Source: a virus. From it: a stretch of 63,331 nt of DNA. The stretch's first letter is position 1. Each line of letters starts with the position of its first letter. The DNA is taken from positions 1 through 63,331 of the IMG/VR virus record IMGVR_UViG_3300037247_000518. One strand, 5' to 3'. Position numbers and translations under genes: made by a program. Shown piece after piece: positions 881 through 20,950 of this stretch. The notes under the pieces are model-generated. The model saw nothing but the letters and a program-made list of their open reading frames with translations. It was not told the origin of the DNA and ran no database searches.

Positions 881-1112
881 TGTCAGAGCACATCGGAAGA
901 AAGTTGCCGCCGCACGGAGGAGCGGTGACCTAAAACCTTCTCCAGAATGTCATGCCTGCTTCATGCTTCAGTGCATCCGATGTGCGCGTTTGGATAATGG
1001 AGATGGCTCAAAGCGGTACAAGGGTAAGACGGATTGCAGTCATTGCCCCGAGCACTGCCCAAACAAGCGAGCTAGGCTGCCTATTGTAGAAGGCATCGAT
1101 AAAGTACCGTGA
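867..1112 (+). CDS. Small cysteine-rich zinc-binding protein
   Basis: An 81-residue protein starting at the ATG that follows GATTGAGGAGCG. It has a basic N-terminus and then cysteines arranged CHACFMLQCIRC and CSHCPEHC, enough for two zinc sites. Nothing shows a catalytic function. Its stop overlaps the GTG start of the DpdA-like gene as GTGA, so the two are probably translationally coupled. Confidence 0.6.
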   Translation: MTAASVRAHRKKVAAARRSGDLKPSPECHACFMLQCIRCARLDNGDGSKRYKGKTDCSHCPEHCPNKRARLPIVEGIDKVP

Positions 1113-2131
1113 GAAAGCTCCCATCCCCACCTATCCCTGATAAGCGTCTGGTCGTCTTCGCCGGTACGCTCCCCGGAGCACGCGGCAAAGCTCTACGTAA
1201 CAGGAAAGCTGAAGCGATCATGGTATCATTTGAAGCTATCCGCACTGGAGGCTGGTGGGAGCGTGAACGTGAGATGTACGATAAGTGGCCGCACTATCGC
1301 TACCTTGATAGTGGTGTCTTCACGCTCATGCGGCAGGCTGGTGTATCGAGAGTTAGCGCAAATACTCAGCCTAAGAAGCAGAGAGAGTCTACGCTTAGAA
1401 AGCGTATGCCAGTCAAGATTCTCAAACAAGAACGCCGTGTCGTTGTCGTACCACAGGCCATGATCCATGAGCGCTTTACCGCGTATCGCGACTACCTGAA
1501 AGAGCATCTTGATGAATGGGACTTCGCGCTCAATTTCGATATCGATCAGTTGAATATCGAACGTGAGGACGGTATGATCATATCAGGCCTGACCGTCGCC
1601 GAGCGCATGACTGCGCAGCTCTACGAGATATGCGGGCCAAAGCTGATCGTCGTCTGGCACCCCGCGAAGATGTCGTGGGATTATTGGAAGGGTCTAGTTG
1701 CCAGCTATGATTACCTCGCGATAGGGAGCGACGCGAAGCTCAGGAGTCGCATTATCAAGTACGCGTGTGACTACGCGCACACACAGGGTAAGCTCGTACA
1801 CGGCCTGGCGGTCGGCACGAAACTCCTCGATCGCATCCCATTCGACACCGCAGACTGTTCGACCTGGATCAGCGGTATTGTCTATGGAATCTTCGCCGGT
1901 ATTAATTATGGGCTGCGATACAAGAAGAACACGTGGGACGCTCGCCATGCGTGGCTTGAGGAATTCACCCGCGGCATCGGCTTAGACCCGGCTGTGCTGA
2001 AGACGAAAGACACGACTGGGCCGAATGCGGTTGCGAAGTTTGAAATTTGTGTCGCCTTATTCCAGCACAAACAAGCACTGCTGCGGGATATCTCAGTACC
2101 ACATGAGCCGGTGAGGTTGCCGATTAGTTAG
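1109..2131 (+). CDS. dpdA: DpdA-like 7-deazaguanine DNA transglycosylase
   Basis: A 340-residue member of the tRNA-guanine transglycosylase superfamily. LDSGVFT (Asp67) matches the TDSGGFQ active-site motif of TGT enzymes, NFDIDQLN lies near 142-149, and IPFDTADCSTW (243-253) resembles the second catalytic segment of phage DpdA proteins. The CxCxxC zinc cluster of tRNA-specific TGT is not seen. DpdA exchanges guanine in DNA for a 7-deazaguanine base such as preQ0, which blocks host restriction. QueC, QueD, QueE and FolE in this window would supply the base. The GTG start overlaps the preceding stop. Residues about 78-115 form an insert rich in Arg and Lys. Confidence 0.8.
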   Translation: MRKLPSPPIPDKRLVVFAGTLPGARGKALRNRKAEAIMVSFEAIRTGGWWEREREMYDKWPHYRYLDSGVFTLMRQAGVSRVSANTQPKKQRESTLRKRMPVKILKQERRVVVVPQAMIHERFTAYRDYLKEHLDEWDFALNFDIDQLNIEREDGMIISGLTVAERMTAQLYEICGPKLIVVWHPAKMSWDYWKGLVASYDYLAIGSDAKLRSRIIKYACDYAHTQGKLVHGLAVGTKLLDRIPFDTADCSTWISGIVYGIFAGINYGLRYKKNTWDARHAWLEEFTRGIGLDPAVLKTKDTTGPNAVAKFEICVALFQHKQALLRDISVPHEPVRLPIS

Positions 2132-2145
2132 AAAAGGATGATCCT

Positions 2146-3180
2146 ATGCTCGTCAAAGACCTGTTTCATCTTGTCGAAATCTTCAAGCTCGTAGAGAAAG
2201 ACCCTGGTACGAAGGAGCTATATCTCGACAAAACTGGCGCGTATCTGGCTGGGATGCATGTTGGAGCGCGGCGTGGCATACCGCGTACAAAGAAGCTCCC
2301 GCTTGATGCTGGTATCAGCATTGATGGCTCGATGCTTATGGGTGTTCTTGCACTCATGAAGTCTGATGCCGAGGTCGCAGTCAAACAGACTGATTCGTCT
2401 CTGATATTGAACGCGAAGGGGCGCCGCGCGATACTCCGCGCGAGACTTGGAGCAGACACCGGAGAGGGTCTGGATTTTATGGGAACGGTCTTCGACAGCT
2501 CGCGCTTGCGTAAAGACCTGGTGTTCCTCAGAGCGTGTGCAGCAGAAGGCGTCATCACTCCTGTATTGACCGGCATCCGCTTCAGCAAGAGCGAGAAGGG
2601 CGTAACTCTCGAAGCGACCGATGCTGAACGACGCTCAGGACGAGTCTCTTTGCCTTTACCACGCGCACTCAAGGTCTCCGGTCAGATTGTTCCCGCTGCT
2701 GATCTGGAAATAGCCCTGTCACTGTTAGGCACGAAAATCTCCATGCAGTTTAGAGGTACACATCTGTACTTGCGAGACGCTAGGACGGTCATAAAGCTCT
2801 CGCTCTTACAGGGCAAATACCCCGATCTAAGCAAACTCCCAAAACCAGATATGTACAAGCATCTCCTCTCTGTCTCGAAGACGCACCTAGATACAGCTAT
2901 CAGAGCTGCTATACTATTCGATAGTGATCGCCTCGTGACGCTCGTCATTAAAGACAGGCAGGCGGCGTTGCTCGTGCGAGGGCAGGAGACAGGAGGCTTC
3001 CGTCAGCCAATTGGCAGAGTCGATCTCAGCGATATCGAGATCATCTTCGATGCCCACTGGCTTGATGCTGCACAGTATATCGGAGCGCGCGCAAAACTAC
3101 GCTACAACGACGCACGGTCACCTGTGCTATTCTCAGGTAACAAACGGCTCCTCTGGATGTCGCCAATCGTGCAAGCATGA
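2146..3180 (+). CDS. dnaN: DNA polymerase sliding clamp (beta subunit-like)
   Basis: A 344-residue protein preceded by AAAAGGATGATCCT. The three-domain beta-clamp pattern is visible: the middle domain carries a GVITPVLTGIRF segment followed by LEATDAERRSG, and the third part contains LLQGKYPDLSKLP, matching the EGxYPDYxxxxP signature of bacterial clamps. It should form a ring that holds the phage DNA polymerase on DNA. The sequence is divergent and slightly shorter than the usual 365-375 residues. Its stop overlaps the helicase start as ATGA, consistent with a replication and repair operon. Confidence 0.8.
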   Translation: MLVKDLFHLVEIFKLVEKDPGTKELYLDKTGAYLAGMHVGARRGIPRTKKLPLDAGISIDGSMLMGVLALMKSDAEVAVKQTDSSLILNAKGRRAILRARLGADTGEGLDFMGTVFDSSRLRKDLVFLRACAAEGVITPVLTGIRFSKSEKGVTLEATDAERRSGRVSLPLPRALKVSGQIVPAADLEIALSLLGTKISMQFRGTHLYLRDARTVIKLSLLQGKYPDLSKLPKPDMYKHLLSVSKTHLDTAIRAAILFDSDRLVTLVIKDRQAALLVRGQETGGFRQPIGRVDLSDIEIIFDAHWLDAAQYIGARAKLRYNDARSPVLFSGNKRLLWMSPIVQA

Positions 3181-4586
3181 AGCTCTACCGCCACCAGAAA
3201 GCGGCCATTCGCAAAGCGCTGTCGCTTGACGCCCGCTGCGGCCTCTTCATGGAGATGGGGACTGGGAAGACTCGCGTTGCTATAGAGACAGCGCGCCGCC
3301 TCAATCACTGTCGCCGCATCATTGTCGTGGCACCCCTTTCTGCTGTAGGTGTGTGGCGTAGAGAAGTGCGCAAGTGGGCACCGCAGGCGAGGACTGTGAC
3401 GTGTGCCTACAAGGGCGTGGTGCAGCGAGCGATTAGATTACGCAGGTTGCGTTACAGGCGGACGCGACGACGCGTGTTCGTCATTGTCGGGTATGAGGCA
3501 TTCTGGCGTAAGCCATTGCGGGACGAAATCCTGAAGTATGAGCCTGACATGATGATCTACGACGAAGCGCACCGGCTAAAGGAGAAGGGAACGAAGCAGA
3601 GCCGCTTTGCACATTCTCTTGCTGCTGCCGAGCAGAAGACACCTAAGCCGGATCACGTCCTGGAATTGACAGGCACCCCTCTGCCTAATGGCCCCGAAGA
3701 TGCTTTCTCGCTATTTAAGTCGATCTCACCTGCCATCTTCGGAAGTCGCTGGATAGACTTCGAGGACAGGTACATCATACGTGGCGGCTTCCAGCGTTAT
3801 CAGATTGTTGGCTATCGTAATCTACCTGAGCTAGAGCAGAAGATCGCAGACAACTCTTACAGGATTACAAAGGCCGAAGCATTTGATCTGCCGCCGGAAG
3901 TCGATGTGCCGGTGCCGGTGATACTGGGCCGTCGCGCACGACGGTACTACGACAAGCTGGCGCGCGATGCTATCGCTGAGATCGAGGATGCGTCAGGCAA
4001 AGGCATTGCTCTCGGACGCATCGTCCTGACTAATATCATACGACTTCAGCAGGTGTCATCGGGCTTTGTGAAAGTCGAAGATGGGCGTTTATTAGACTTC
4101 GACAAGTCGAAGCAGCATGCGCTAGCAGACCTGTTGCAAGAGGCGATCTTGAGCGCCGGACGTGCGGTCGTCTTCTGCAAGTTTACGCATGATGTGAAGG
4201 TTGCTATCAAGGTTGCGCAGAAACTTGTGGGCGAGGCTGTGTACAGGATCGACGGAAATGTCCCTCCACGAGATAGAGAGGCGCAGCTAAAATGGTTCAG
4301 GACATTTGACCGGAGTGTGCTGGTCTGCCAGATTCAGGTTGCTGAGGCTATCGACCTCTCATGTGCGCACATCAGCATCTTCTACGGTAGGGACTACTCA
4401 CTGCTCCACTTCGACCAGGCGAGGGGGCGAATACATAGAAAAGGCCAAGAGCAGAAAGTCACCCATTACCATCTGATTGCTGAAGACACCATCGACGGGA
4501 AGATATACGAGGCACTACAGAAGAAGGATAAGCTACAACGCGAACTGCTTGACGCGAACCGCGCAACGGAATTCTTTGGAGGATGA
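3177..4586 (+). CDS. SNF2-family DNA helicase/translocase
   Basis: A 469-residue superfamily 2 ATPase. Motif I is MEMGTGKT (25-32), motif II is DEAH near 128, TGTP marks motif III, and the C-terminal RecA-like domain ends with QARGRIHRKGQ, the SNF2 motif VI with its arginine fingers. Such phage proteins remodel replication forks or recombination intermediates. It starts inside the clamp stop codon and is followed 4 bases later by a small gene with its own GGAGG. Confidence 0.9.
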   Translation: MKLYRHQKAAIRKALSLDARCGLFMEMGTGKTRVAIETARRLNHCRRIIVVAPLSAVGVWRREVRKWAPQARTVTCAYKGVVQRAIRLRRLRYRRTRRRVFVIVGYEAFWRKPLRDEILKYEPDMMIYDEAHRLKEKGTKQSRFAHSLAAAEQKTPKPDHVLELTGTPLPNGPEDAFSLFKSISPAIFGSRWIDFEDRYIIRGGFQRYQIVGYRNLPELEQKIADNSYRITKAEAFDLPPEVDVPVPVILGRRARRYYDKLARDAIAEIEDASGKGIALGRIVLTNIIRLQQVSSGFVKVEDGRLLDFDKSKQHALADLLQEAILSAGRAVVFCKFTHDVKVAIKVAQKLVGEAVYRIDGNVPPRDREAQLKWFRTFDRSVLVCQIQVAEAIDLSCAHISIFYGRDYSLLHFDQARGRIHRKGQEQKVTHYHLIAEDTIDGKIYEALQKKDKLQRELLDANRATEFFGG

Positions 4587-4590
4587 TCCC

Positions 4591-4857
4591 ATGGCTAAGG
4601 TCTGGCATAAATCTCAATGGTACTTCGATGTTCCGTGGGGTGCTTGGCACCTAACAGAGCCTGGTGAGTTCGAGGAGAGTGTGGCCCCTCCTACGCTACT
4701 CAGGCTTGAGGCAGAGCATGTACATATGCTCATCAAGGCACTCGACGAAGCGGGCTGGATAGTCCCGCGTCTCGATGTGCGCCTGCGCGAAGAAGACCTG
4801 AAAATCACACATCGGCTATTAGACCTCCTCGAAGAGCGTAAACATGCCGATTCATAA
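4591..4857 (+). CDS. Hypothetical protein, 88 aa
   Basis: Starts at the ATG after TTGGAGGATGATCCC. The N-terminus is aromatic (WHKSQWYFDVPWGAWHL), followed by an acidic helical C-terminus. No family is recognised. It overlaps the next small gene by 14 bases in another frame. Confidence 0.6.
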   Translation: MAKVWHKSQWYFDVPWGAWHLTEPGEFEESVAPPTLLRLEAEHVHMLIKALDEAGWIVPRLDVRLREEDLKITHRLLDLLEERKHADS

Positions 4858-4978
4858 ACATACTTGGGGATTCTGTCTCTTTGGACGGTGGCCCTTTATT
4901 AGGAGAGTGAAAATTCAATTTACTCTCATCGATCTTAAGGACGGTCAGTGCCCAGTATGTCGTAAGGAATTCAAGTGA
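4844..4978 (+). CDS. 44-aa zinc-knuckle microprotein
   Basis: A short frame from ATG to TGA containing one CPVC pair plus upstream His and Cys residues (HKHTW, FCLF), a plausible single zinc site. It overlaps the preceding gene, and its stop overlaps the GTG start of the MT-A70 gene as GTGA. This exact tiling is the main evidence that it is translated. Function is unknown. Confidence 0.55.
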   Translation: MPIHKHTWGFCLFGRWPFIRRVKIQFTLIDLKDGQCPVCRKEFK

Positions 4979-5583
4979 TCGTCAACATCCATAAAACTCG
5001 TAAGCGCTACGCGACGATCCTAGCTGACCCGCCGTGGAAGTACGCTGTGCTTTTACCTCCTATTAAGCCTAAGCATGGGGGTAGAGTGTCGAGAGATTTA
5101 CCTTACGATACAATGACCTTTGAGGAGATTGCTGCTGTTCCAGTTGGGAGGATTGCTGCAACAGATTCCCAACTTTGGCTTTGGACAACGAACAGCCACC
5201 TACACGAGGCATTGCATGTGATAGAAGCATGGGGATTCACATATAAGGGAGTACGGACTTGGTTCAAGGGGACTTTGGGCTTAGGTACATGGCTGCGCGG
5301 TGCTACAGAGCAGTTACTCTTTGCTGTACAAGGGAATCCTCGCTATGGATTTGGTAAGAAATATACGAAGGGTAATCCTGCAATTTCGACGGCTATCGCA
5401 GATTCCGTGAAGCTGGCCCACTCACGTAAGCCTGTTCAGTCCTATCGTGACATAGAGCGAGTCTGTGGAGATCCTAAGATAGAACTATTCGCCCGTCGAG
5501 CACGTCCAGGGTGGGACTCGTGGGGGGACGAAGCTAAGGACATCGACAGAGAGTTGGAGCGCGATATGAGGAGACACCTGTAA
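4975..5583 (+). CDS. MT-A70 family adenine-specific DNA methyltransferase
   Basis: A 202-residue protein with the catalytic DPPW motif at 18-21, followed by PYDTMTFEEI and a GFTYKGVRTWFKG strand typical of MT-A70 (ParB-associated) phage methyltransferases; the C-terminus has VQSYRDIE and ELFARRARPGWDSWG, the usual SAM-binding end of this permuted fold. It would make N6-methyladenine in DNA. Together with DpdA it would give the phage two independent base modifications. GTG start overlapping the upstream microprotein. Confidence 0.9.
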   Translation: MIVNIHKTRKRYATILADPPWKYAVLLPPIKPKHGGRVSRDLPYDTMTFEEIAAVPVGRIAATDSQLWLWTTNSHLHEALHVIEAWGFTYKGVRTWFKGTLGLGTWLRGATEQLLFAVQGNPRYGFGKKYTKGNPAISTAIADSVKLAHSRKPVQSYRDIERVCGDPKIELFARRARPGWDSWGDEAKDIDRELERDMRRHL

Positions 5584-5798
5584 TGTCCCTCCACGATCTG
5601 ATACACGATAAGGAGAAAGCGGCGGAAACATTGCGTGAGATCGCGCTAGAGGTGGAGTCGGGTTGCTTGGTAATCACTGACGTTCGCATAGAAAGTAGCC
5701 CGATGGATATGGGCATCCGTACTGAAGGCCGACGCTTGACAATTCAGTTTATCTCCACAGGACAGCACGACGACGATCTGCTCGAAGACCTATCGTGA
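5583..5798 (+). CDS. Hypothetical protein, 71 aa
   Basis: Begins in the TAATG overlap with the methyltransferase stop and ends in a GTGA overlap with the next gene. A predicted helix is followed by two strands (CLVITDVRIES, RRLTIQFIS) and an acidic tail. The alpha-beta character and coupling support expression; no function is recognised. Confidence 0.6.
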   Translation: MSLHDLIHDKEKAAETLREIALEVESGCLVITDVRIESSPMDMGIRTEGRRLTIQFISTGQHDDDLLEDLS

Positions 5799-6010
5799 GC
5801 ATCTTCGCCTCTGAGTTTGAGGCGGATTTTAAGGCGATGATATCGTCTGTCAATCTCGTCACAGATGCCTTAACTGAGCTTGCCGATAGCGCGTGTAGGG
5901 CTAGTGACGAAATCAGAGAGGCCGTCGAAGAAACGGAAGGAGATTGGGCAGACAAGTGGGCCTCCCACTATCGAGCCTATATAGAGCGTACAGAGTATGA
6001 TGATCTTTGA
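5795..6010 (+). CDS. Hypothetical acidic helical protein, 71 aa
   Basis: GTG start overlapping the previous stop. Mostly helical and acidic, with a W-rich segment (GDWADKWASHYRAYIE) near the end. It overlaps the start of the polymerase gene by 14 bases. Family unknown. Confidence 0.55.
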   Translation: MSIFASEFEADFKAMISSVNLVTDALTELADSACRASDEIREAVEETEGDWADKWASHYRAYIERTEYDDL

Positions 6011-8465
6011 TCCTAGCTGCACTCGCTGTATCTTGCATAGCGCGGCGGAAAGCGTCTGCATCCCTGCCTCTGGTCCTGACGACGCCAAGATTCTGTTCTA
6101 CGGAGAAGGCCCAGGCGGGGAAGAAGACAAGGAGAACGAGCCGTTCATAGGGCCAGCAGGCCAGGAGCTTGATGTACTTCTAGGAGAAGCCGGACTCTCA
6201 CGAAAGCGTGTGCGAGTCTCTAACACCGTCCGCTGCCGCCCGCCTGGTAATAGAGACCCGAGTGAAGACGAGCGCGCCGCGTGTATGCTCTATACTGTCC
6301 GCGAGATCGAGGCAGTGAAGCCGAAAATCATAATCGCTCTGGGTGTCTCTGCTCTCAAAGCACTTACGGGCATTAAGAAGATTGGCGATAGCCGAGGTAA
6401 ACTTCTTTCGCTGCTTCCACAGTATCGCTCGGATGTGCCGGTCATCGCCACATACCACCCTGCCGCGTATCTTCACAACCCAGGTATGCGTGGTGCGTAC
6501 TCGAAATCTATCATCGAAGACATGCGTCTCGCGCAAAAGGTGGTATCTGGCTCGGTCATGCGGGCGAAGATTGTCACGTCTCTGAACAAGGGTGCCGTTA
6601 TCAGACGAACGCTAAAGCGCCTCGCCAAGTGCGACGTGCTCGGCTGCGACCTGGAGTGGGAGGTTCTGCCGTCGAAGAAGAAGGACCCTCTTGGCATGTG
6701 GCCGTGGTCTGCACGTAGAGGTAAGCGTCCGCGTCCTGTGTCTATCGCCATCGCAGGCCGCGTAGACGACAAGATCCTCGCTCTGTCTGTGCCATTCACG
6801 AGCGAGTATGCGGACGACGTGCGCCAGATCATCCGTAGAGTGCCTACCATCTACCACAATGCGATGGCCGACTTGATCTGGCTATATCATCTGGGCTGGA
6901 AAGTGAAGCTCGATAGCTGTACGTTCATCCTAGCCTCGCTCTTGAAGATCGACAGTTCACTGTCACTAAAAGTCCTCGCGCCCATGCTGACAGACATGCC
7001 AGTAGGATGGGAGCGTGATGATTCTGGTATGGGCATCATGCCGGTTTCGAGAGACGAGTGGCGCAGGAAGTTAAAGTATGGTGGCTATGATGCCATCGCG
7101 ACATTCCTACTCAAGCCTAAGCTGCTTGAGCTGGTACACGAGCAGAAGCGAGACGATGTGCTCCCGCTCTATCATCACGTGTTGCTTCCTGCAACTGAGA
7201 TTCTTGCGAGGACAGCTCTGAGCGGTACACCCATAGATCAGCCGCTCTTGAAGTCTATACGGACGAAGGTCTTGCGTAGGGTTAGTGTTCTCACTGAGAA
7301 GATAGGCGATGAATTAGAATTGCCTGCTGATTATGAAGCGATTATCAGTAGCGACATGAAACTCGCTCCCTATCTTGAACGCGTTGGTGTGGACCTACCG
7401 AGGACAAGGAAGACCGATCGGCCTAGCGTCACGAACGATGTTCTGCTCAAGAACAAGAAGGCGCATACGGTCATTCCGCCTATCATCACACGTAGACAGT
7501 TGACTAAGCAAGAATCTGGCTACTGGCGGCCCTGGACGTGGCTCCTGGAGACACAGCGCGACAAACGGCTCCATACTATCTACCGGCTTTCGGTGGCCTC
7601 TACCGGGCGCTCGTCTACGGAGGGTGAAATAGGGTATACGTTCCAACAGTTTCTCAGAGGTAAAAAGTTTCGCCGCCTCGTTCAGGCTCGTAAGGGCTGG
7701 GAAATTCTCTCTGTTGACCAATCGCAGATCGAACTCAGGATCGTCGCCTGGCTCGCGCAAGAACGGCGCATGCTAGAATTCTTCCGGGATGATAAAGACC
7801 TGCATACTGCGATAGCGGGGTGGATGAAAGCCCTGGAAGCAGGGTGGACTATTAAGAAGTACATCAGGCACATGGAGCAGTGGACAGGGGATGTCACAAG
7901 GGCAGAACGCACCGGAGCAAAGCCCATCAACTTCGGCTTACTTTTCGGTGGCGGGCCATCTGTTGTTCAGAAGACCGCGCGCAAAGACTATGGGATTATT
8001 CTTAGTGATGAGCAGTCGGAAGTAGCCTACGATGCATATCACATCTTCTACCCTGACGTACGGCCCTGGCAGGAGACATTCTGGCGTGATGTCAAGCGCG
8101 GATATGGGGAGACATCGCTGGGTCGCAGGCGTAGTGTCAGAGAGGACGAAGAGGGGCCGGATGGCGTGTGGCGTAAGTACATCAACCTCGATGTGCAGGC
8201 TACGGCGTCTGATCTTTCATTGTTTTGCATGGACTACACATGGGAATTACTGAGGAAGGAGTTTGGTAGGCATCTCAGGAGTCTAGCCGAGAATATAGGG
8301 TTCTTCCACGACGCGACTTTGATCCACCTTGATCGCGAGGTCAGGAGTGAAGTCGGGGCCATTGTGAGAGAGTCGTGGGAGCACCCTCCACTAGACCGTA
8401 TAGGTCTCGAAATGGACGTGCCGCTGAAAGCTGATATCAAGATCAGAGAGCGTTGGACTACTTGA
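5997..8465 (+). CDS. Uracil-DNA glycosylase / family A DNA polymerase fusion
   Basis: 822 residues. Residues 1-190 are a family 4-like UDG: Cys8, Cys11, Cys80 and Cys96 fit the [4Fe-4S] ligands, GEGPGGEED (36-44) is motif A and YHPAAYL (153-159) motif B. Residues about 200-380 are a 3'-5' exonuclease with DLE (218-220), HNAMADL and a YxxxD segment (YGGYD), so proofreading should be intact. The rest is a Pol I-type polymerase: motif A VDQSQIELR (Asp574), motif B RTGAKPINFG, motif C FFHDATLIH (Asp772). Motif C has Ala where family A normally has Glu (HDE). UDG-polymerase fusions are known in some phages such as the SPO1 group. It is the replicative polymerase candidate, paired with the clamp. 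Confidence 0.9.
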   Translation: MMIFDPSCTRCILHSAAESVCIPASGPDDAKILFYGEGPGGEEDKENEPFIGPAGQELDVLLGEAGLSRKRVRVSNTVRCRPPGNRDPSEDERAACMLYTVREIEAVKPKIIIALGVSALKALTGIKKIGDSRGKLLSLLPQYRSDVPVIATYHPAAYLHNPGMRGAYSKSIIEDMRLAQKVVSGSVMRAKIVTSLNKGAVIRRTLKRLAKCDVLGCDLEWEVLPSKKKDPLGMWPWSARRGKRPRPVSIAIAGRVDDKILALSVPFTSEYADDVRQIIRRVPTIYHNAMADLIWLYHLGWKVKLDSCTFILASLLKIDSSLSLKVLAPMLTDMPVGWERDDSGMGIMPVSRDEWRRKLKYGGYDAIATFLLKPKLLELVHEQKRDDVLPLYHHVLLPATEILARTALSGTPIDQPLLKSIRTKVLRRVSVLTEKIGDELELPADYEAIISSDMKLAPYLERVGVDLPRTRKTDRPSVTNDVLLKNKKAHTVIPPIITRRQLTKQESGYWRPWTWLLETQRDKRLHTIYRLSVASTGRSSTEGEIGYTFQQFLRGKKFRRLVQARKGWEILSVDQSQIELRIVAWLAQERRMLEFFRDDKDLHTAIAGWMKALEAGWTIKKYIRHMEQWTGDVTRAERTGAKPINFGLLFGGGPSVVQKTARKDYGIILSDEQSEVAYDAYHIFYPDVRPWQETFWRDVKRGYGETSLGRRRSVREDEEGPDGVWRKYINLDVQATASDLSLFCMDYTWELLRKEFGRHLRSLAENIGFFHDATLIHLDREVRSEVGAIVRESWEHPPLDRIGLEMDVPLKADIKIRERWTT

Positions 8466-8490
8466 CAGACGAGCCGGAACATGTTACTAT
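8462..8490 (+). promoter_or_regulatory. Sigma70-like promoter
   Basis: TTGACA (8462-8467), 17 bp spacer, TACTAT (8485-8490). It overlaps the stop codon of the polymerase gene and would start a transcript about 45 bases before the RecB-like nuclease gene. Confidence 0.65.
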
Positions 8491-8542
8491 ACAAATGCAC
8501 TTGTCCCTTTCGTGAAGTTATAGTCGTGAAGGTCGTCTTCTT

Positions 8543-9577
8543 ATGAAGCCGCTAAGGATCTCTTACTCCGCTGCCCGAGACTGGCAGACGTGTCAGGAGC
8601 TTTACTCAAAGCGTCACATCGAGCAGTTACAACCCAAGCTCCGACAGGCAGCACCAGAGCTTGGGACGATGATTCATGAATACTTTAGGCTCTACTATAG
8701 CAGGCTGGATCCTGGTGATGACCATACGCCGAGAGAGCATCATCGGTATGCTCTCACCGTAACCATGAGGAAGTTCAAGCCCGAGATTCTTTCTCTTGCG
8801 TCTCTCGCTGATGGGCTCGGTGCTGAGGAAGAAGCGAAGAAACTACTCTCTCTACCTCTAACAGCCCGACGGCTGCTTAATGCCTACTTTCGTGTCCAGG
8901 GCAAAGCCGATGCTACACAGCATGAAATCATTGCCGTCGAGCACAGGTTCGAGTTGCCTGTAGATGGTAAGCATGTTGTGCTGCCGGGTGTAATCGACCT
9001 GGTAACGCGAACGCAAGATGGCAATGTCTGGTTGTGGGAGCATAAGACAACTGGCAGCATACCGTCACAGGGGCGACGGTTTCGTGACCTCCAAGTCTTA
9101 ATCTACAAAGTCGCGGTTGAGGAGATACTGGGCTTAGAGCCCACCGGCGTTATTTGGAACTACATCCGCACGAAGCCCCCAGTGCCTCCGAAGGTTCTCA
9201 AGAATGGTCTGCTCAGTACCGCCCAGCATCAGACGACAACACTAGGTCTATTCAAAAAGGCGATGCGCGGAGCCGGAGCAGACCCTCATAAGTACGACTC
9301 ATATCTCAGGCAGCTTGAGCGTCACGAGCGCGAAGTCATGTTCCCGCGGCACACATTGGCGCTCACGCAGTCTGAGGAAGTCTTGCTTCGTGACTATGTA
9401 GCTACTGTCCATGAGATAGAGGCGGCGCGATCCAAGAAGGATTTCATCCCGATTCGCAATCTAGGAGCACAGTGCGACTGGTGTCCATTTGTGAAGCTCT
9501 GCCAAGCGGCCGTAGCAGGAGGAGATATTGATGGACTAAGACAGCGGCACTTCAAGGCTGACAAGAAAAAGAGATAG
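8543..9577 (+). CDS. RecB/Cas4-like PD-(D/E)XK exonuclease with Fe-S cluster
   Basis: 344 residues. An N-terminal SYSAARDWQTCQ with one cysteine, a GTMIHEYF helix, LPGVIDLV (metal-binding Asp) and WEHKTT (E-x-K) define the PD-(D/E)XK core, followed by a DLQVLIY helix. C-terminal CDWCPFVKLC supplies three more cysteines, giving the four-Cys cluster of AddB/Cas4-type nucleases. It likely resects DNA ends for the adjacent Sak4-like ATPase and SSB-like protein. First gene after the 8462 promoter. Confidence 0.85.
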   Translation: MKPLRISYSAARDWQTCQELYSKRHIEQLQPKLRQAAPELGTMIHEYFRLYYSRLDPGDDHTPREHHRYALTVTMRKFKPEILSLASLADGLGAEEEAKKLLSLPLTARRLLNAYFRVQGKADATQHEIIAVEHRFELPVDGKHVVLPGVIDLVTRTQDGNVWLWEHKTTGSIPSQGRRFRDLQVLIYKVAVEEILGLEPTGVIWNYIRTKPPVPPKVLKNGLLSTAQHQTTTLGLFKKAMRGAGADPHKYDSYLRQLERHEREVMFPRHTLALTQSEEVLLRDYVATVHEIEAARSKKDFIPIRNLGAQCDWCPFVKLCQAAVAGGDIDGLRQRHFKADKKKR

Positions 9578-9589
9578 GAGCAGAACAAC

Positions 9590-15640: not shown

Positions 15641-15666
15641 TGCCCTGTCGGATCACAGTCTATTCT

Positions 15667-15728
15667 CTGTCACTCTGACTCATACCTGTCACCTATCTAA
15701 TCCCTATCTAAGAGTGACAGAGTGACAG
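15667..15728. repeat. Four GTGACAG boxes, paired as inverted repeats
   Basis: CTGTCAC at 15667-15673 and 15686-15692 faces GTGACAG at 15714-15720 and 15722-15728. The outer pair extends to an 11-bp perfect inverted repeat (15667-15677 and 15718-15728). The boxes lie in the only sizeable gap of the rightward replication block, directly after the Prim-Pol gene, and abut a TATAAT hexamer. Candidate operator or replication origin. Confidence 0.55.
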
Positions 15729-15730
15729 TA

Positions 15731-15736
15731 TATAAT
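15731..15736 (+). promoter_or_regulatory. Perfect -10 hexamer beside the GTGACAG boxes
   Basis: TATAAT 2 bases after the last GTGACAG box. No good -35 lies 16-18 bp upstream; the boxes occupy that place, as at an activator-dependent promoter. It would serve the HNH/queD/queE/folE operon. Confidence 0.45.
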
Positions 15737-15765
15737 TGAGAAGCTATAGCGAGAGAAAGTGGGGG

Positions 15766-15780
15766 CGCCCCTTCGGGGCG
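15766..15780. other. GC-rich hairpin in leader
   Basis: CGCCCC-TTC-GGGGCG, a 6-bp stem followed by AAAAATTAAAG rather than a T run. It sits in the transcript leader of the HNH gene and may be a stability element. Confidence 0.4.
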
Positions 15781-15807
15781 AAAAATTAAAGTAACAAGAG
15801 GCTGTAT

Positions 15808-16347
15808 ATGCGTAATAAGAGTGTCACCGTCACCATAGAAGGTATCCAGAATAGCAGGAGAACATACGCCACAAAAGCGGTGTTAACGCACCTCCTAGAG
15901 AGGGACGGGCTTCTATGCCAGCTTTGTCAAAAGTCTCTTGGAGAGGAAGACCTTAGTATTGATCACATCATGCCACAGGGTGTAGGAGGGAGGCACACGC
16001 TAGATAACTTCCAACTAGCTCATGGGCGATGCAATAAGAGTAAGGGTAGAGGCTCACATGCAAACTTGTTATTCAAAGCAGGCATCATTCCAGTAGGCAT
16101 AGCTTCTACAAGCGCGGAGTATCGGATACTATATGCGGAGGCACGAGATGCTATAGAGACTCGTTGGTGGAGGAAGTGGGGTAGTAGCTTGGTTGGGTCT
16201 GGGAGGCGATACTCGATATCAGAATGGAAATACATTGAGGACGACGTGTACGCGAAAGTCTGGAAGCTGCGTGTAAGGAAAGGAGAAGAGGCGGCGCTGG
16301 CGTACGATCCAAAGCGATCAGAGTTCAGCAGAAGGAGTACAGTATGA
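15808..16347 (+). CDS. HNH endonuclease
   Basis: 179 residues with CQLCQKSL, LSIDHIMPQGVGG, LDNFQLAHGRCNKSKG, a complete HNH core with two CxxC-type zinc ligands. It may be a homing nuclease or a packaging-related HNH; the distance from the terminase argues for the former or a DNA-processing role. The leader has AGTAACAAGAGG. The ATGA end couples it to queD. Confidence 0.9.
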   Translation: MRNKSVTVTIEGIQNSRRTYATKAVLTHLLERDGLLCQLCQKSLGEEDLSIDHIMPQGVGGRHTLDNFQLAHGRCNKSKGRGSHANLLFKAGIIPVGIASTSAEYRILYAEARDAIETRWWRKWGSSLVGSGRRYSISEWKYIEDDVYAKVWKLRVRKGEEAALAYDPKRSEFSRRSTV

Positions 16348-16742
16348 AAATAGGGAAAACATATTACTTCGAGGCAGCCCATAGCCTGCCGGGACATAAC
16401 GGTAAATGTAGAAATCTTCATGGACACAGTTACCGTCTCGATGTTGAATTAGAAGGTATCCCGATACTATATCTACATTGCTCCGATGATGGGATGATTC
16501 TTGACTTCGATGATCTCGATAGGGCCGTCGAACGAATCATTGATGGGCACCTAGACCATAGAAATCTAAACGCTTCGTTACCTGAGTCTGAGGTCCGTCG
16601 AACAACTGCCGAACTGATTTGTGGATGGGTCTCAAGACGTATCGATCAGGAGCTAGCCGCAGTGAGGACTGGGCGTGACTTCCGTCTCTCTCGTGTCCGT
16701 CTCTGGGAGACAGTGAAGTCCTGGGCTGAGTGGACACCGTGA
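16344..16742 (+). CDS. queD: 6-carboxy-5,6,7,8-tetrahydropterin synthase QueD
   Basis: 132 residues. FEAAHSLPGHNGKCRNLHGHSY carries the zinc ligands His13, His26 and His28 and catalytic Cys22; LDHRNLN and the late Glu in LWET complete the active site. QueD converts dihydroneopterin triphosphate from FolE to carboxytetrahydropterin in the preQ0 pathway. It lies two genes upstream of queE and three upstream of the FolE fusion, so this is a dedicated pathway operon. Confidence 0.95.
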   Translation: MKIGKTYYFEAAHSLPGHNGKCRNLHGHSYRLDVELEGIPILYLHCSDDGMILDFDDLDRAVERIIDGHLDHRNLNASLPESEVRRTTAELICGWVSRRIDQELAAVRTGRDFRLSRVRLWETVKSWAEWTP

Positions 16743-17134
16743 CTAGTCCAGAGCGTCGTATCCTGCCTGATGTTCGCAAGAGCATCACGCACAAGACGGT
16801 GATCCAGGATCGTGCGATGGGCAACATCTCGCTATTCATCACAGCGGGTATGTATGATGACGAGGCTCTCGGCGAAGTCTGGATCAACATCGGCAAACAG
16901 GGGACGACGTTACGCGGATTGACTGATACGATAGCGATTGAGCTGTCCTTGCTTCTTCAGTATGGAGTCCCACTCGAAGCCATCGTCGAGCAGTTTCGTG
17001 GGCATCGCTACGAGCCACTTGGAACGACGGCGAACCCCCACATCCCAAACTGTGTGTCTATCATCGATTACGTGGTACAATGGCTAGAGTGGGCGTTCAT
17101 CACCGAGAGACAGAAGGAGGATCCTGATGCCTGA
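16739..17134 (+). CDS. TSCPD domain protein
   Basis: 131 residues from a GTG overlapping the queD stop (another GTG lies 9 bases upstream). MGNISLFITAG, EVWINIGKQGTTLRGL and VPLEAIVEQFRGHRYEP match the TSCPD domain found at the C-terminus of B12-dependent ribonucleotide reductases and as free-standing phage proteins. No reductase is seen in the window. In phages it often travels with nucleotide and queuosine genes; its role is unproven. Confidence 0.75.
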   Translation: MTSPERRILPDVRKSITHKTVIQDRAMGNISLFITAGMYDDEALGEVWINIGKQGTTLRGLTDTIAIELSLLLQYGVPLEAIVEQFRGHRYEPLGTTANPHIPNCVSIIDYVVQWLEWAFITERQKEDPDA

Positions 17135-17417
17135 TATTTATATCAATTTGACACATCAGCAATACAAAGAGGTCGAGCGACAAATGCGTGCGTTCGAGGA
17201 GACGACGCACGGCGAGGGCACAGCCTACTATCATAAGTCGTTCGCTATGGACGTGGGAGGCATCCGATTCGAGTTCCACGGCCCCCCCGTGAAAGCAAGA
17301 CGGGGTGCGCTCGTTCTCGGTGATCCGCTGTGCAAAGTTATGCAAGGGAGCGATCCCACTATACTATGCGATAAGCCAGAGGGGCATCCTGGAGAACACT
17401 CTCGGGCAGGCAAATGA
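17127..17417 (+). CDS. Hypothetical protein, 96 aa
   Basis: Overlaps the TSCPD gene end and the queE start. Contains a beta-rich middle (VGGIRFEFHGPPV) and a C-terminal CDKPEGHPGEHS metal-binding-like motif. AGAAGGAGGATCCTG precedes the ATG. Function unknown. Confidence 0.6.
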   Translation: MPDIYINLTHQQYKEVERQMRAFEETTHGEGTAYYHKSFAMDVGGIRFEFHGPPVKARRGALVLGDPLCKVMQGSDPTILCDKPEGHPGEHSRAGK

Positions 17418-18184
17418 TCGAAGTAAGCGAGATGTACGTAGCACCACAGGGCGAGGGGCCGAATATGGGTCGCCTGTCGCTCTTTGTCAGGCTGCGTCGC
17501 TGTACGCTGCGTTGTGTCTGGTGCGATACGAAGCAGACATGGGACAAGGGCGATCCAGATTACGAGAAGTATGAGACCTACGAGCCACACCAGCTTGCCA
17601 GCGCAATGCTAAAGAAGGGTCAGCCCTTTGGCAGACTTTCTTCGCTCGATGTCCAAGCCATTGTGCTGACGGGAGGCGAGCCGCTGATGTGGCAAGAGGA
17701 GATGGTCGAGGCATTGATTTCGTATCGTAGCACTCACGGTATCCCAGTCGAAGTCGAGACTTCTGGGACTATCGTGCCGAACACGGACATGCTCATGAAC
17801 TGTAGCTTCACCGTCTCGCACAAGCTAGCCTCTTCGCATAACGAGGGCATCCTGAGAGATTACCTGTGGAATGAGAAGGTTGTGCAGCGCATCATAGCGC
17901 ACAGCGGGCAATCTCTGCGCAATGTGAACTTCAAGCCTGTCGTAGACCCTGTTCAAGATGTCGTGGAGGTTGCGTCATACCTGAATTGGCTTAACAACAT
18001 ATCTGACCGCCTTGGAATTCCTTGGAGTTTCATGCGGGAGCACATCTATCTTATGCCACAAGGAACAAGTGCTCTTGAGCTGAGCGCCAACCAGGCGCCT
18101 ATTATTGAGATGGCGCAGGCTTACGGAGTGCGGTGTACTACGCGTATGCACATCATCGCATACGGAGACGAGAGGGGAAGATAA
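17414..18184 (+). CDS. queE: 7-carboxy-7-deazaguanine synthase QueE
   Basis: 256-residue radical SAM enzyme. Cys30, Cys34 and Cys37 (CTLRCVWC) bind the SAM [4Fe-4S] cluster, APQGEGPNMGR is the QueE N-terminal signature and LTGGEPL the second SAM motif. It makes 7-carboxy-7-deazaguanine from the QueD product; QueC then makes preQ0. ATGA and TAATG overlaps link it to both neighbours. Confidence 0.95.
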   Translation: MIEVSEMYVAPQGEGPNMGRLSLFVRLRRCTLRCVWCDTKQTWDKGDPDYEKYETYEPHQLASAMLKKGQPFGRLSSLDVQAIVLTGGEPLMWQEEMVEALISYRSTHGIPVEVETSGTIVPNTDMLMNCSFTVSHKLASSHNEGILRDYLWNEKVVQRIIAHSGQSLRNVNFKPVVDPVQDVVEVASYLNWLNNISDRLGIPWSFMREHIYLMPQGTSALELSANQAPIIEMAQAYGVRCTTRMHIIAYGDERGR

Positions 18185-19146
18185 TGCAGATCAGTATGGG
18201 CGCCGCAGCAAGCCTGGCAGAGAGCGTGTCCGATCTCCTGCAAGACGGCCTTGGACGCCTTAGTATGCGTGGGCCTACAGCGTTTGCTGGCATACCGCGC
18301 GGCGGCATACCAGCAGCCATGATGGTAGCGAGGGCCTGGGCTGGTCTTGGGGGTAACTCTGAGATTCCCGTGTTTAGCAGTGACGATGTGCCCGAATCGT
18401 TCCGCGAGCGTATCGTCCTCGTTGACGACATACGAGTCACTGGTAATACTCTGGCTAGAGCAAAGGCTCTATTTGCCCCGAATGTTATATCCCAAGTCGT
18501 ACTGGTGCATAAGGGATTAGCTTCTGATGTTCTATCTGGGATGGAGGTGCCAGCAAATGAATGGGTGACATTTCCTTGGGAGACTCGTGAGAATGACGGT
18601 AAGCCAGAGGACGCTGTCTCCAGGCTCATCGAGTATCTAGGTGACGACCCAACTCGGGACGAGCTACTTGAGACGCCTGCCAGGGTGCTGCGCTTCTACG
18701 ACGAGCTGCGCGCCGCCTCGGAGCAGGAGATAGTCTCTGCGACCTTTAAGTCTACGACAAAAGACCTCGTAGTAGTCTCCGGCATCCCGTTCGCTTCGCT
18801 CTGTGAACACCACATGCTCCCCTTCTTCGGAGAAGCGGCAATCGGATATATACCGAACGGAAGTATCCTTGGTTTGTCCAAGCCCGCTCGTGCTGTCCAG
18901 CAAGCAGCGGCGGCGCTGACAGTACAGGAGCACTTGACGGCGCAAGTCGCTGAGCAGATTAAGGAGTGGACAGGTTCGGGCGCTGTCGCTGTCTTCACAA
19001 CCGCTGTGCATTCCTGCATGGTGATACGCGGTGTCAAAGCCATAGGCTCCAGGACATCGGCGTCGGCAATGCTTGGCAGCTTCCGCACATCTCCTGAACT
19101 ACGTGCCGAATTCTTTGCGGTCGTTGAGGGGGCGAGCAGGCTATGA
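18184..19146 (+). CDS. folE: Phosphoribosyltransferase / GTP cyclohydrolase I (FolE) fusion
   Basis: 320 residues from the ATG overlapping the queE stop. Residues 1-130 form a type I phosphoribosyltransferase domain: AGIPRGGIPAA and the PRPP loop VLVDDIRVTGNT (78-89). Residues 150-320 are FolE: CEHHMLPFFG with zinc ligands Cys207 and His210, LGLSKPARAV, LTVQEHL, and VHSCMVIRG with Cys278. FolE makes dihydroneopterin triphosphate from GTP, the first step to preQ0. The fused PRTase may salvage or condense a base; its substrate is unknown. Confidence 0.9.
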   Translation: MQISMGAAASLAESVSDLLQDGLGRLSMRGPTAFAGIPRGGIPAAMMVARAWAGLGGNSEIPVFSSDDVPESFRERIVLVDDIRVTGNTLARAKALFAPNVISQVVLVHKGLASDVLSGMEVPANEWVTFPWETRENDGKPEDAVSRLIEYLGDDPTRDELLETPARVLRFYDELRAASEQEIVSATFKSTTKDLVVVSGIPFASLCEHHMLPFFGEAAIGYIPNGSILGLSKPARAVQQAAAALTVQEHLTAQVAEQIKEWTGSGAVAVFTTAVHSCMVIRGVKAIGSRTSASAMLGSFRTSPELRAEFFAVVEGASRL

Positions 19147-19382
19147 CGCGGCTTGAAGGTATAGTTGCGGGACACTGTACCGCTGACGATCATCACGAGT
19201 ACGGGGCTGAGCCTGAAGACTGCGTTTTGATAGACGGTAAGGAAGTTTGCCTCTATTGTCTTATTGATGTGGCTAAGCCGCATCTGATGTTTGAGGGAGA
19301 CTGCATTGCCAGAGAGGAAGAAAGCCTGAGACGGCAGCGAGAGGAACTTATTGGTGCTCCTGAGGGAGATCCCGGTGCTTGA
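19143..19382 (+). CDS. Hypothetical Cys/His protein, 79 aa
   Basis: ATGA overlap with the FolE fusion. Contains a DHHEYG motif, a VCLYCLID cysteine pair and an acidic C-terminus. Probably binds zinc. The -35 box of a promoter overlaps its stop codon. Confidence 0.55.
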   Translation: MTRLEGIVAGHCTADDHHEYGAEPEDCVLIDGKEVCLYCLIDVAKPHLMFEGDCIAREEESLRRQREELIGAPEGDPGA

Positions 19383-19408
19383 CAGCACTAGCAGAAAAGT
19401 TGTATACT
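19379..19408 (+). promoter_or_regulatory. Strong sigma70-like promoter of a leaderless gene
   Basis: TTGACA (19379-19384), 18 bp, TATACT (19403-19408). The ATG of the next gene lies at 19415, about where transcription should start, so the mRNA would be leaderless or nearly so. Confidence 0.75.
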
Positions 19409-19414
19409 GAAAGC

Positions 19415-19954
19415 ATGAAACTTCCAAAGAGGCTCAAGAGCGGACGCAGGCTGGTAGCAACGGCGGCTGATGGTCGTGTGGGTCTGTACTGTTTGGGAAC
19501 GGTCGATGAAGATGGCGACTACGCCCTCCTCCTTCCGAACGGTAAGATCAAGAGAGGTATGGTCGGTGCGAAAGGCTATCCTCTCGCGCCAAGCGGGAAC
19601 TGGAGGTGGCTTCGCGCGAGGAAAAAGCGAGTGCGAGAGCGCAGGGAGAAGAAGCTGCAGGCTATACAGCGGCGTTCGCGTAATGGCGACGAGGAGTCGA
19701 AGAAGGTCCTTGTTTCCAGCATCCATACCTGTGTGGACTGCAAGCGCAACATGCTTGGCTATCAGCACTCTCATACAATGCTCCACGAGCGCGGCTATGG
19801 CGTGGCGTCTATCTGTTGTCGGTGTGCGCGTCGGCGTGGCGGTCGCTGCGAGCTATACGACCGTACAGCGAGAATCAGACGCCACACGCAGCAACGAGAT
19901 GCACGCAGGGCCGAGTGGCGAGAACTAAAGCAACGGCTGAGGCATATCACATGA
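19415..19954 (+). CDS. Basic zinc-finger protein
   Basis: 179 residues from ATG 19415. A TTG 36 bases upstream is in frame but overlaps the -35 box, so the internal ATG is preferred. A beta-rich N-terminus (VGLYCLGTVDEDGDYALLL) is followed by a very basic helix and CVDC...CCRCARRRGGRC zinc ligands. A nucleic-acid-binding role is likely. It overlaps the next gene as ATGA. Confidence 0.6.
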   Translation: MKLPKRLKSGRRLVATAADGRVGLYCLGTVDEDGDYALLLPNGKIKRGMVGAKGYPLAPSGNWRWLRARKKRVRERREKKLQAIQRRSRNGDEESKKVLVSSIHTCVDCKRNMLGYQHSHTMLHERGYGVASICCRCARRRGGRCELYDRTARIRRHTQQRDARRAEWRELKQRLRHIT

Positions 19955-20367
19955 CATCGAACCGAGTGAAGACGATCAAGCGGCTGAGGCGTCTGGCGAA
20001 GACAATGACGCAGGCACAAGCTGCTGAGCGCCTCAATGTCCACCGTCAGTGGGTGCATGTGCTGGCGCACGACTACGGTATCAGGTTCCGGGGCCAGCCA
20101 AAGGCGCGGCCGCTCAGGCGCTGTGATACGTGCGCGTTCAAACTCTGCGATGCTCCCAGATGTCTACGCTGTAAGTGGACGCCCAAGAGGATCAAACGTC
20201 TTCGGGAGCGCTATGGGCTCTCGCAGATCAACATGTCTGTTCATGTCTTAAGGATGAATGTCTTCGCATGTCAGAGATGGGAGACTGGGCGAGCCCTCCC
20301 CGCTCCGAGATCGCTAAGGCTGCTTGAGCGCAGCGAGAAGAAGATCAGGCGCCGTACTACGGCGTGA
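19951..20367 (+). CDS. Double-HTH regulator with zinc ribbon
   Basis: 138 residues. MTQAQAAERLNVHRQWVHVL (residues 19-38) is a helix-turn-helix, CDTCAFKLCDAPRCLRC is a zinc ribbon, and KRLRERYGLSQINMSVHVLR followed by RWETGRALPAP is an XRE-type second HTH. Likely a transcription regulator. It is the last gene of the rightward block, expressed from the 19379 promoter, and ends 11 bases inside the convergent queC gene. Confidence 0.7.
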   Translation: MTSNRVKTIKRLRRLAKTMTQAQAAERLNVHRQWVHVLAHDYGIRFRGQPKARPLRRCDTCAFKLCDAPRCLRCKWTPKRIKRLRERYGLSQINMSVHVLRMNVFACQRWETGRALPAPRSLRLLERSEKKIRRRTTA

Positions 20368-20950
20368 TGCCGTTTGCCTCTAGTGCTTCTCTCCGTCTGA
20401 TGCAGGCTTTACACTTTCCACACGACAACTCGTCTGGGTCATAACAGCTTACGGTCTTTTGCAGCATTTCCGGGTCGCCACCGAGTTCAAGATACTCGTG
20501 TACAGCCCCGGCTTTTGATAGTGCTCTTAAACTCGGCCCAAGCAGAGGCGATGAGACCCTCACCTGGTATCCCGCTGTGTGCGAGAGTAGTGCTGATATG
20601 CCGGTATGGAAGTCCGCGTCATTGTCGGCGTACATATCGTCAGCGACTGAGCACAGCGCTATCTCTGATGCGCCGTAGAGCGCTTGTGCAGCGGCGCAGA
20701 GTAGTACGTTACGCTGTGGTATGTATGCATCATCGTGCTCGATGCGGTCGAGTCTCAGCATGTTGCGTATGATGTAGAGGCCGGCGTGGAGGGCTTCTGG
20801 TTGCGCTATGTGATCCAACTCTTTGTTGCTATACCTGATATTGAGATCGAAGTAGACGGGTGTCCAGTCTGGCGATTGCCGCCGCAAGAGCCAGAGGCCT
20901 ATATACGAGTCGAGTCCTCCTGAGTACAGGATGATTTTTCTAGTGCCCAT
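20357..20950 (-). CDS. queC: 7-cyano-7-deazaguanine synthase QueC
   Basis: 197 residues. ILYSGGLDSYIG is the PP-loop ATP-binding motif and SCYDPDELSCGKCKAC gives the four zinc cysteines. QueC converts the QueE product to preQ0. The start at 20950 has GGAG 8 bases upstream and lies inside the end of the preceding small gene. Unlike the other preQ0 genes it is on the opposite strand, downstream of a terminator-like hairpin, so its expression may be set separately. Confidence 0.95.
   Translation of the reverse strand: MGTRKIILYSGGLDSYIGLWLLRRQSPDWTPVYFDLNIRYSNKELDHIAQPEALHAGLYIIRNMLRLDRIEHDDAYIPQRNVLLCAAAQALYGASEIALCSVADDMYADNDADFHTGISALLSHTAGYQVRVSSPLLGPSLRALSKAGAVHEYLELGGDPEMLQKTVSCYDPDELSCGKCKACIRRREALEANGITP

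What the first reader, a model, noticed from the sequence alone, without database searches (positions are those of the whole stretch)
1109..20950. Complete preQ0 pathway plus DpdA: 7-deazaguanine-modified phage DNA
FolE (18184), QueD (16344), QueE (17414), QueC (20357, minus strand) and a DpdA-like enzyme (1109) are all present. QueF is not seen, so preQ0 or a derivative of it, not preQ1, is the likely base.
Basis: partly seen in the sequence, partly recalled or inferred. Interest (0 to 1): 0.75.

Follow-up and report, generated by a model that had tools for sequence, protein, structure and literature searches.

The report
Phage preQ0 pathway with DNA-inserting DpdA
This uncultured phage carries all the genes thought to be needed to make a modified guanine (probably preQ0) and insert it into its own DNA against host restriction, and its first pathway enzyme, like that of many such phages, is fused to a purine-salvage-type domain that may recycle the guanine thrown out in the exchange.

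Summary
Two co-linear uncultured relatives conserve the set, so far as their truncated contigs show. No QueF or class-II amidotransferase was found in the 63 kb, but the record is incomplete, so their absence from the phage is not proven. The genes fit the known 'DpdA plus preQ0 genes, no amidotransferase' group of phages, two of which (CAjan, Rosebush) carry dPreQ0. The exact base is less certain, because this QueC lacks one essential motif of canonical QueC.

New here: the FolE is a fusion, with a xanthine-guanine phosphoribosyltransferase-type N-terminal domain. Such fusions lie almost only in phage preQ0/DpdA clusters (77 of the best 80 viral hits; 1 of 80 in cellular genomes, itself beside DpdA). 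I found no paper describing this. Likely role (inferred): it turns the guanine released by DpdA back into GMP, hence GTP for FolE. In this lineage the Asp expected to contact purine N7 is Val (Asp in 111 of 116 fusions), so its substrate or activity may differ. Verdict: known kind, new variant.

The parts
1109..2131 (+). DpdA-like guanine transglycosylase (340 aa), predicted to exchange guanine in DNA for a 7-deazaguanine base
   Evidence: phrog_887 E=1.2e-10; DSG at 67-69 invariant and Asp249 conserved in >=90% of a 39-member alignment; hhalign chain to 9g DpdA; AlphaFold pLDDT 82; informatively named viral fold matches at E<=1e-3 are all queuine tRNA-ribosyltransferases
2146..3180 (+). sliding-clamp-like gene next to dpdA (context, not pathway)
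   Evidence: PF02767 E=6.6e-5, below Pfam's cut-off; dpdA is next to or near an annotated clamp in 9g, MMDA13, a Stenotrophomonas phage and Dp-1
15808..16347 (+). free-standing HNH endonuclease, start of the coupled gene string (context)
   Evidence: PF14279 E=5.6e-11; overlaps QueD by 4 bases; conserved in relative G001 (48%)
16344..16742 (+). QueD, 6-carboxytetrahydropterin synthase
   Evidence: PF01242 E=1.4e-32; CxxxHGH motif CRNLHGH in the translation
16730..17134 (+). stand-alone TSCPD domain, like the tail of B12-dependent ribonucleotide reductase; accessory, role unknown
   Evidence: PF12637 E=4.6e-12; NF005122 E=4.7e-35 to positions 739-858; slot holds a deoxyribosyltransferase-like gene in G001
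17127..17417 (+). small ORF (96 aa) in the same overlapping gene string, no known family
17414..18184 (+). [quoted passage not shown]
   Evidence: phrog_2076 E=2e-44; PF04055; CTLRCVWC = CxxxCxxC in the translation
18184..19146 (+). fusion: XGPRT-type phosphoribosyltransferase (about residues 1-135) plus GTP cyclohydrolase I FolE (about 140-320)
   Evidence: PF01227 E=1.4e-54; PRTase profile A10, which includes this domain, hits E. coli XGPRT 1a95 at 6e-13 and 1vdm at 7.5e-16; the window domain alone hits 1vdm at 3.6e-4; start overlaps QueE stop as TAATG
20357..20950 (-). QueC-like 7-cyano-7-deazaguanine synthase, divergent
   Evidence: PF06508 E=4.2e-20; SGGLDS, IPQRN, YADN and C(x)7CxxCxxC with Tyr after the first Cys present, YxQxHxxE absent; 47% identical fragment in relative G002

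Best explanation
A phage-encoded system that makes preQ0 (or a near relative, ADG or CDG) from GTP and inserts it into the phage's own DNA. FolE, QueD, QueE and QueC act in sequence; DpdA then swaps guanine in DNA for the 7-deazaguanine base, blunting host restriction enzymes. The FolE is fused to a xanthine-guanine phosphoribosyltransferase-type domain. I infer that in phages with this fusion the guanine released by DpdA is converted with PRPP to GMP, hence GTP, which refills the pathway and pulls the exchange forward. Shown: the genes, their conservation in relatives, the fusion and its near-confinement to DpdA/preQ0 phage clusters. Inferred: all enzyme activities here, the identity of the base, and guanine recycling.
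For: Family hits for all five genes. Relative G001 is co-linear and keeps dpdA, queC, queD and queE; G002 keeps queD, queE, the PRTase-FolE fusion, a window-like queC fragment and part of dpdA; each contig is cut inside the set. DpdA family link by profile and fold. Same gene set gives dPreQ0 in CAjan and Rosebush (PMC6884629). Fusion profile hits XGPRT structures. In viral contigs 77 of 80 best hits are fused, with QueD in 70, QueE in 70 and DpdA in 58 within the fetched flank; in genome contigs 1 of 80 is fused, and it lies with dpdA/queC/queD/queE. Starting from DpdA instead, 20 of 53 and 7 of 39 loci with FolE carry the fusion. The PRPP motif, Lys and Trp of XGPRT-type enzymes are conserved in 116 fusions.
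Against: No chemical data. The window QueC lacks YxQxHxxE (Tyr35 is essential in E. coli QueC, PMC13329287), so it may stop at ADG or act differently. In the window and G002 the PRTase has Val where 111 of 116 fusions have Asp in DDxxD[ST]G; if that residue is the general base, guanine turnover may be weak here. Many DpdA phages, including 9g, lack the fused PRTase, so it is not essential to the chemistry. Fold search against the PDB gave no match at E<=1e-3. The fused and cellular counts come from capped lists ranked by a fused query.
Confidence: 0.7

Rival explanations
1. The genes make a 7-deazaguanine base in DNA, but it is ADG or CDG rather than preQ0, because the divergent QueC performs only part of the QueC reaction or none.
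For: Window QueC and fecal-phage QueC L004 lack Tyr35 of YxQxHxxE (Leu and Met instead) and the Cys of YPDC; Tyr35Ala kills E. coli QueC. The score is below the TIGR00364 cut-off (56 against 150 bits).
Against: Relative G001 has a canonical-scoring QueC (162 bits) in a pathway otherwise shared with the window, suggesting the two types are interchangeable. Arg of PxRN, Tyr of YPDC, Tyr after the first zinc Cys and the zinc cysteines are kept. 9g Gat-QueC also deviates (YGCRA, YPDN) yet supports 7-deazaguanine insertion.
Confidence: 0.25
2. The genes raise preQ0 for host tRNA queuosine rather than for DNA, and the DpdA-like protein acts on tRNA.
For: phrog_887 and several viral relatives are annotated 'queuine tRNA-ribosyltransferase', and the preQ0 pathway is shared with tRNA modification.
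Against: The protein groups with phage DpdA, whose 9g and CAjan members act on DNA (PMC6884629), not with cellular TGT (no PDB TGT hit). It lies beside a clamp-like gene and replication genes.
Confidence: 0.07
3. The phosphoribosyltransferase domain is not a guanine-recycling enzyme but a nucleotide-binding or allosteric domain controlling FolE, or a 7-deazaguanine phosphoribosyltransferase.
For: The window and G002 share DDIRVTG: the otherwise near-invariant Asp is Val while the rest of the site is kept. The N-terminal part is short (about 135 residues).
Against: 111 of 116 fusions keep the Asp and 116 of 116 keep the Trp that aligns with the XGPRT WxxxPW motif. Separate, unfused PRTase genes next to FolE in MaInes and L023 argue for an enzyme.
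Confidence: 0.3
4. The pathway is decayed and inactive in this phage.
For: queC has moved to the opposite strand away from dpdA, and the record is truncated.
Against: All reading frames are intact, zinc and Fe-S motifs are kept, and the QueD-QueE-FolE reading frames overlap with their neighbours as if translationally coupled. dpdA is 78% identical in G001, with conserved motifs.
Confidence: 0.04

Closest known systems
Phage dPreQ0 systems of Escherichia phage CAjan and Mycobacterium phage Rosebush (second group of Hutinet et al. 2019, PMC6884629)
   Same: DpdA plus FolE, QueD, QueE and QueC; no amidotransferase or QueF seen
   Different: DpdA only remotely related; QueC divergent; FolE fused to a PRTase here (whether CAjan and Rosebush carry one was not checked); pathway split between two places
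Queuovirinae and similar phages with PRTase-FolE fusions (Quinobequin-P09, MMDA13, Vibrio 1.207.B, Stenotrophomonas ply2008005c)
   Same: Same PRTase-FolE fusion, in a queE-queC-queD-folE-dpdA run
   Different: They keep DDxxD[ST]G; the window and G002 have DDIRVTG. Their fusion is annotated only as GTP cyclohydrolase, and they belong to other phage groups
Fecal phage MT835752 and relatives (L004, L011)
   Same: Nearest clade of the DpdA apart from G001/G002; compact dpdA-queC-queD-queE-folE cluster
   Different: Shorter DpdA (about 250 aa) and FolE without PRTase
E. coli xanthine-guanine phosphoribosyltransferase (XGPRT, Gpt)
   Same: PRPP loop, RGG, Lys and WxxxPW elements
   Different: Fused to FolE, shorter, and lacks the Asp of DDxxDTG in this lineage

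Membership tests
Phage preQ0/DpdA system, second group of Hutinet et al. 2019 | DpdA homologue present | tested here: met
Phage preQ0/DpdA system, second group of Hutinet et al. 2019 | FolE, QueD, QueE and a QueC-family protein present | tested here: met
   conserved in G001 (no FolE seen, contig cut) and G002
Phage preQ0/DpdA system, second group of Hutinet et al. 2019 | No amidotransferase (ArcS, Gat-QueC) and no QueF | tested here: inconclusive
   PF14489 and PF13522 have no match in G000, G001 or G002; ArcS was not searched; all three records are fragments
Phage preQ0/DpdA system, second group of Hutinet et al. 2019 | dPreQ0 in virion DNA | not testable with these tools
   needs LC-MS
DpdA | Conserved DSG Asp and the later Asp (TGT acid/base and nucleophile by homology, my own knowledge) | tested here: met
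   D67 invariant, D249 in >=90% of alignment A8
DpdA | TGT-like solved structure as nearest fold | tested here: not met
   no PDB match at E<=1e-3, best hits are other TIM-barrel-type enzymes; the viral library gave named queuine-TGT proteins
DpdA | Assignment to a named DpdA subfamily (DpdA, DpdA2 and others) | tested here: inconclusive
   profile reaches the 9g family only weakly (E=4e-5); no tree was built
Canonical QueC (cluster 1 of PMC13329287) | SGGxDS, PxRN, Tyr of YPDC, zinc cysteines with Tyr after the first Cys | tested here: met
   SGGLDS, IPQRN, YADN, C(x)7CxxCxxC beginning CY
Canonical QueC (cluster 1 of PMC13329287) | YxQxHxxE motif and C(x)8CxxCxxC spacing | tested here: not met
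   LNIRYSNKE in place of the first; seven residues between the first two cysteines
GTP cyclohydrolase I (FolE) | Zinc ligands CEHH and HxC | tested here: met
   CEHHM and VHSCM, conserved in the fusion alignment
Xanthine-guanine phosphoribosyltransferase | RGG loop, DDxxx[ST]GxT PRPP motif, Lys and WxxxPW[ED] base site | tested here: met
Xanthine-guanine phosphoribosyltransferase | Asp in DDxxD[ST]G (purine N7 contact, my own knowledge) | tested here: not met
   Val in the window and G002, Asp in 111 of 116 fusions

The most novel reading that the evidence does not exclude
In this lineage the fused phosphoribosyltransferase has changed substrate: with Val in place of the N7-contacting Asp it takes a 7-deazaguanine base (which has no N7) and makes the nucleotide, so modified guanine could also be salvaged or enter DNA at the nucleotide level beside DpdA.
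Probability: 0.07. Interest if true: 0.8.

Novelty: new variant of a known kind. Interest (0 to 1): 0.5.

Why it matters
DpdA swaps a base rather than building a nucleotide, so each modification should release a guanine. A salvage-type domain fused to the first enzyme of the same pathway, recurring in many phages and nearly absent from cellular FolE, points to a closed guanine-to-preQ0 loop that can be tested with purified protein and standard E. coli mutants. It also gives a marker gene for 7-deazaguanine phages in metagenomes, and this lineage's Asp-to-Val change offers a natural test of base specificity.

Tried and rejected
AlphaFold of DpdA with a 2-sequence alignment failed (pLDDT 43) and was replaced by a 39-sequence run (pLDDT 82). 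DpdA sequence against the PDB, alone and as a profile, gave nothing. Nucleotide megablast against phages gave no match. Single-sequence scans with the PRTase domain and the TSCPD protein found no viral relatives. A DNA pattern for DDIRVTG in viral contigs found nothing, but it omitted AGR arginine codons, so it says little. A clamp next to dpdA looked general in named phages, but the clamp profile found one in only 15 of 58, 1 of 80 and 0 of 80 DpdA loci, so I did not build on it. Papers with DpdA and phosphoribosyltransferase together: none in the library. Cui et al. 2023 (further DpdA subfamilies, known to me from memory) was not held.

Full report
WHAT WAS CHECKED. The window is a 63,331-base uncultured virus record classed as linear, G+C 55%. 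QueD carries CxxxHGH (CRNLHGH), QueE carries CxxxCxxC (CTLRCVWC), and FolE carries CEHH and HxC. QueD to FolE form a run of overlapping reading frames; FolE starts at 18184 in a TAATG overlap with QueE.

DPDA. The protein at 1109-2131 has no Pfam or NCBIfam match but hits phrog_887, queuine tRNA-ribosyltransferase, at 1.2e-10. In deposited phage records only one matches, a fecal phage at 32% over 36% of the query. That record, MT835752, and L011 carry dpdA, queC, queD, queE and folE together. Profile comparison links the window pair to that clade (9e-13) and that clade to the family of 9g DpdA (3.5e-20); the direct link is weak (4e-5). The DSG Asp67 is invariant and Asp249 nearly so in 39 sequences. 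The AlphaFold model is good (pLDDT 82, pTM 0.82). It finds no PDB structure at E<=1e-3 but 22 viral proteins at that level, and every one with an informative name is a queuine tRNA-ribosyltransferase. I call it a DpdA-like protein of a divergent branch.

RELATIVES. Two uncultured contigs share this genome plan. G001 (54,567 bases; dpdA 77% identical) is co-linear over replication, structural and tail genes. Its contig ends inside queE, so folE is out of sight. G002 (52,270 bases; dpdA 38% over the part present) keeps helicase, polymerase, primase, queD, queE and the fused folE (52%), with a window-like queC fragment at its left end and dpdA cut at its right end. The pathway is thus maintained in a phage lineage, while queC moves. 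In the window it lies on the other strand after folE; in G002 it sits near dpdA if the two contig ends join; in G001 a different, canonical-scoring queC (162 bits) sits directly upstream of dpdA. The window lacks about 7 kb that G001 has between the tail gene and dpdA, and it ends inside an ORF. It is incomplete.

NATURE OF THE BASE. QueF (PF14489) and class-II glutamine amidotransferase (PF13522) have no match in the three records; ArcS was not searched. The gene set equals the second group of Hutinet et al. (PMC6884629), where CAjan and Rosebush carry dPreQ0 in about 32% and 28% of G. One caution is QueC. A 2026 study defines canonical QueC by SGGxDS, YxQxHxxE, VPxRN, YPDC and C(x)8CxxCxxC, with Tyr35, Arg99, Tyr131 and Tyr189 essential (PMC13329287). 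The window QueC keeps SGGLDS, PxRN, the Tyr of YPDC and the zinc cysteines with the following Tyr, but has LNIRYSNKE in place of YxQxHxxE. 9g Gat-QueC deviates too (YGCRA, YPDN) and still supports insertion of a 7-deazaguanine, though it keeps the Tyr. PreQ0 remains most likely; ADG or CDG is possible.

THE FUSION. The first 135 or so residues of FolE are a separate domain. The window domain alone hits a purine phosphoribosyltransferase in the PDB (1vdm, 3.6e-4). A profile of eight phage domains hits purine, xanthine and xanthine-guanine phosphoribosyltransferases first (1vdm 7.5e-16; E. coli XGPRT 1a95 6e-13). The same fusion exists unremarked in known phages: Nipunaviruses, MMDA13, Vibrio 1.207.B, Stenotrophomonas phages. 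In MaInes a separate 'xanthine phosphoribosyltransferase' gene follows folE. The MMDA13 and Hutinet papers do not mention phosphoribosyl, and no paper in the library holds both DpdA and phosphoribosyltransferase.

HOW SPECIFIC IS IT. With a six-member fusion profile, 77 of the best 80 viral loci are fused; QueD is found in 70, QueE in 70, DpdA in 58 and at least two pathway genes in 72 within the fetched flanks, many of which are cut by contig ends. Of the best 80 cellular loci one is fused, and it has queD, queE, queC and dpdA beside it; none of the other 79 has DpdA. These lists are capped and ranked by a fused query, so the viral figure overstates frequency; for the cellular set the same bias works against the result. 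Starting from DpdA instead, 20 of 53 loci with FolE in one clade sample and 7 of 39 in another are fused, plus one separate PRTase gene in each. It is a common accessory, not a required part; 9g and Dp-1 lack the fusion.

PROPOSED MECHANISM. Shown: genes, conservation, fusion, association. Inferred: FolE, QueD, QueE and QueC make preQ0; DpdA exchanges it for guanine in DNA after replication; the freed guanine is converted to GMP by the fused domain and re-enters as GTP. This would both save guanine and remove the product that could reverse the exchange.

A LINEAGE-SPECIFIC CHANGE. In 111 of 116 fusions the PRPP motif reads DDxxD[ST]G; only the window and G002 have Val at that Asp, while RGG, DD, Lys, Trp and PWE are kept. 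In 6-oxopurine phosphoribosyltransferases this Asp is held to contact purine N7 (my own knowledge; not confirmed in the papers reached). Either guanine turnover is weakened here or the preferred base has changed; a 7-deazaguanine, lacking N7, would fit. I give that 7%.

CONFIDENCE. About 0.85 that the phage makes some 7-deazaguanine and inserts it in DNA; about 0.65 that it is mainly preQ0; about 0.5 that the PRTase recycles guanine in fusion phages generally, less in this lineage.

Noticed in passing
G001 (L007:1179-2304, minus strand): The native queD is split: an N-terminal piece (VKIGKTYRFEAAHHLPNHRGG) and a C-terminal piece (ILSRVRLYETEKCYAEWT), both resembling the window QueD, flank one ORF that joins an HNH-like endonuclease to a second, complete, only distantly related QueD. 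It looks like a mobile element that carries a working copy of the gene it interrupts.
   Followed up: partly
L002:13970-17353: DNA polymerase A of G001 carries an in-frame insert of about 280 residues at SVDQ^S, beginning CLSGDTLV and ending ISHN|S: a probable intein with an HNH-like region, absent from the window polymerase.
   Followed up: partly
5997-8465: DNA polymerase A with an N-terminal uracil-DNA glycosylase domain (PF03167, 3.5e-28).
   Followed up: no
16730-17134: Stand-alone TSCPD domain close to the tail of B12-dependent ribonucleotide reductase lying between queD and queE; the slot holds a nucleoside 2-deoxyribosyltransferase-like gene in G001.
   Followed up: partly
4975-5583: MT-A70 family DNA methyltransferase (PF05063, 6e-29; phrog_359), conserved in G001 (51%).
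   Followed up: no
25876-28162: Minus-strand pair: a 'porphyrin biosynthesis' phrog_249 gene, probably CobS-like, and phrog_1909, unknown.
   Followed up: no
50360-51673: Glycosyltransferase-like gene (phrog_2170, 2.5e-35) in the structural region, conserved in both relatives.
   Followed up: no
L011:4-1415: Two overlapping tandem DpdA-like genes in one phage, followed by queC, queD, queE and folE; the terminase large subunit downstream (5517-7814) appears to contain an intein.
   Followed up: no
1109-3180: dpdA lies next to or near a sliding-clamp-like gene here and in several unrelated phages, but not in most uncultured DpdA loci tested.
   Followed up: partly
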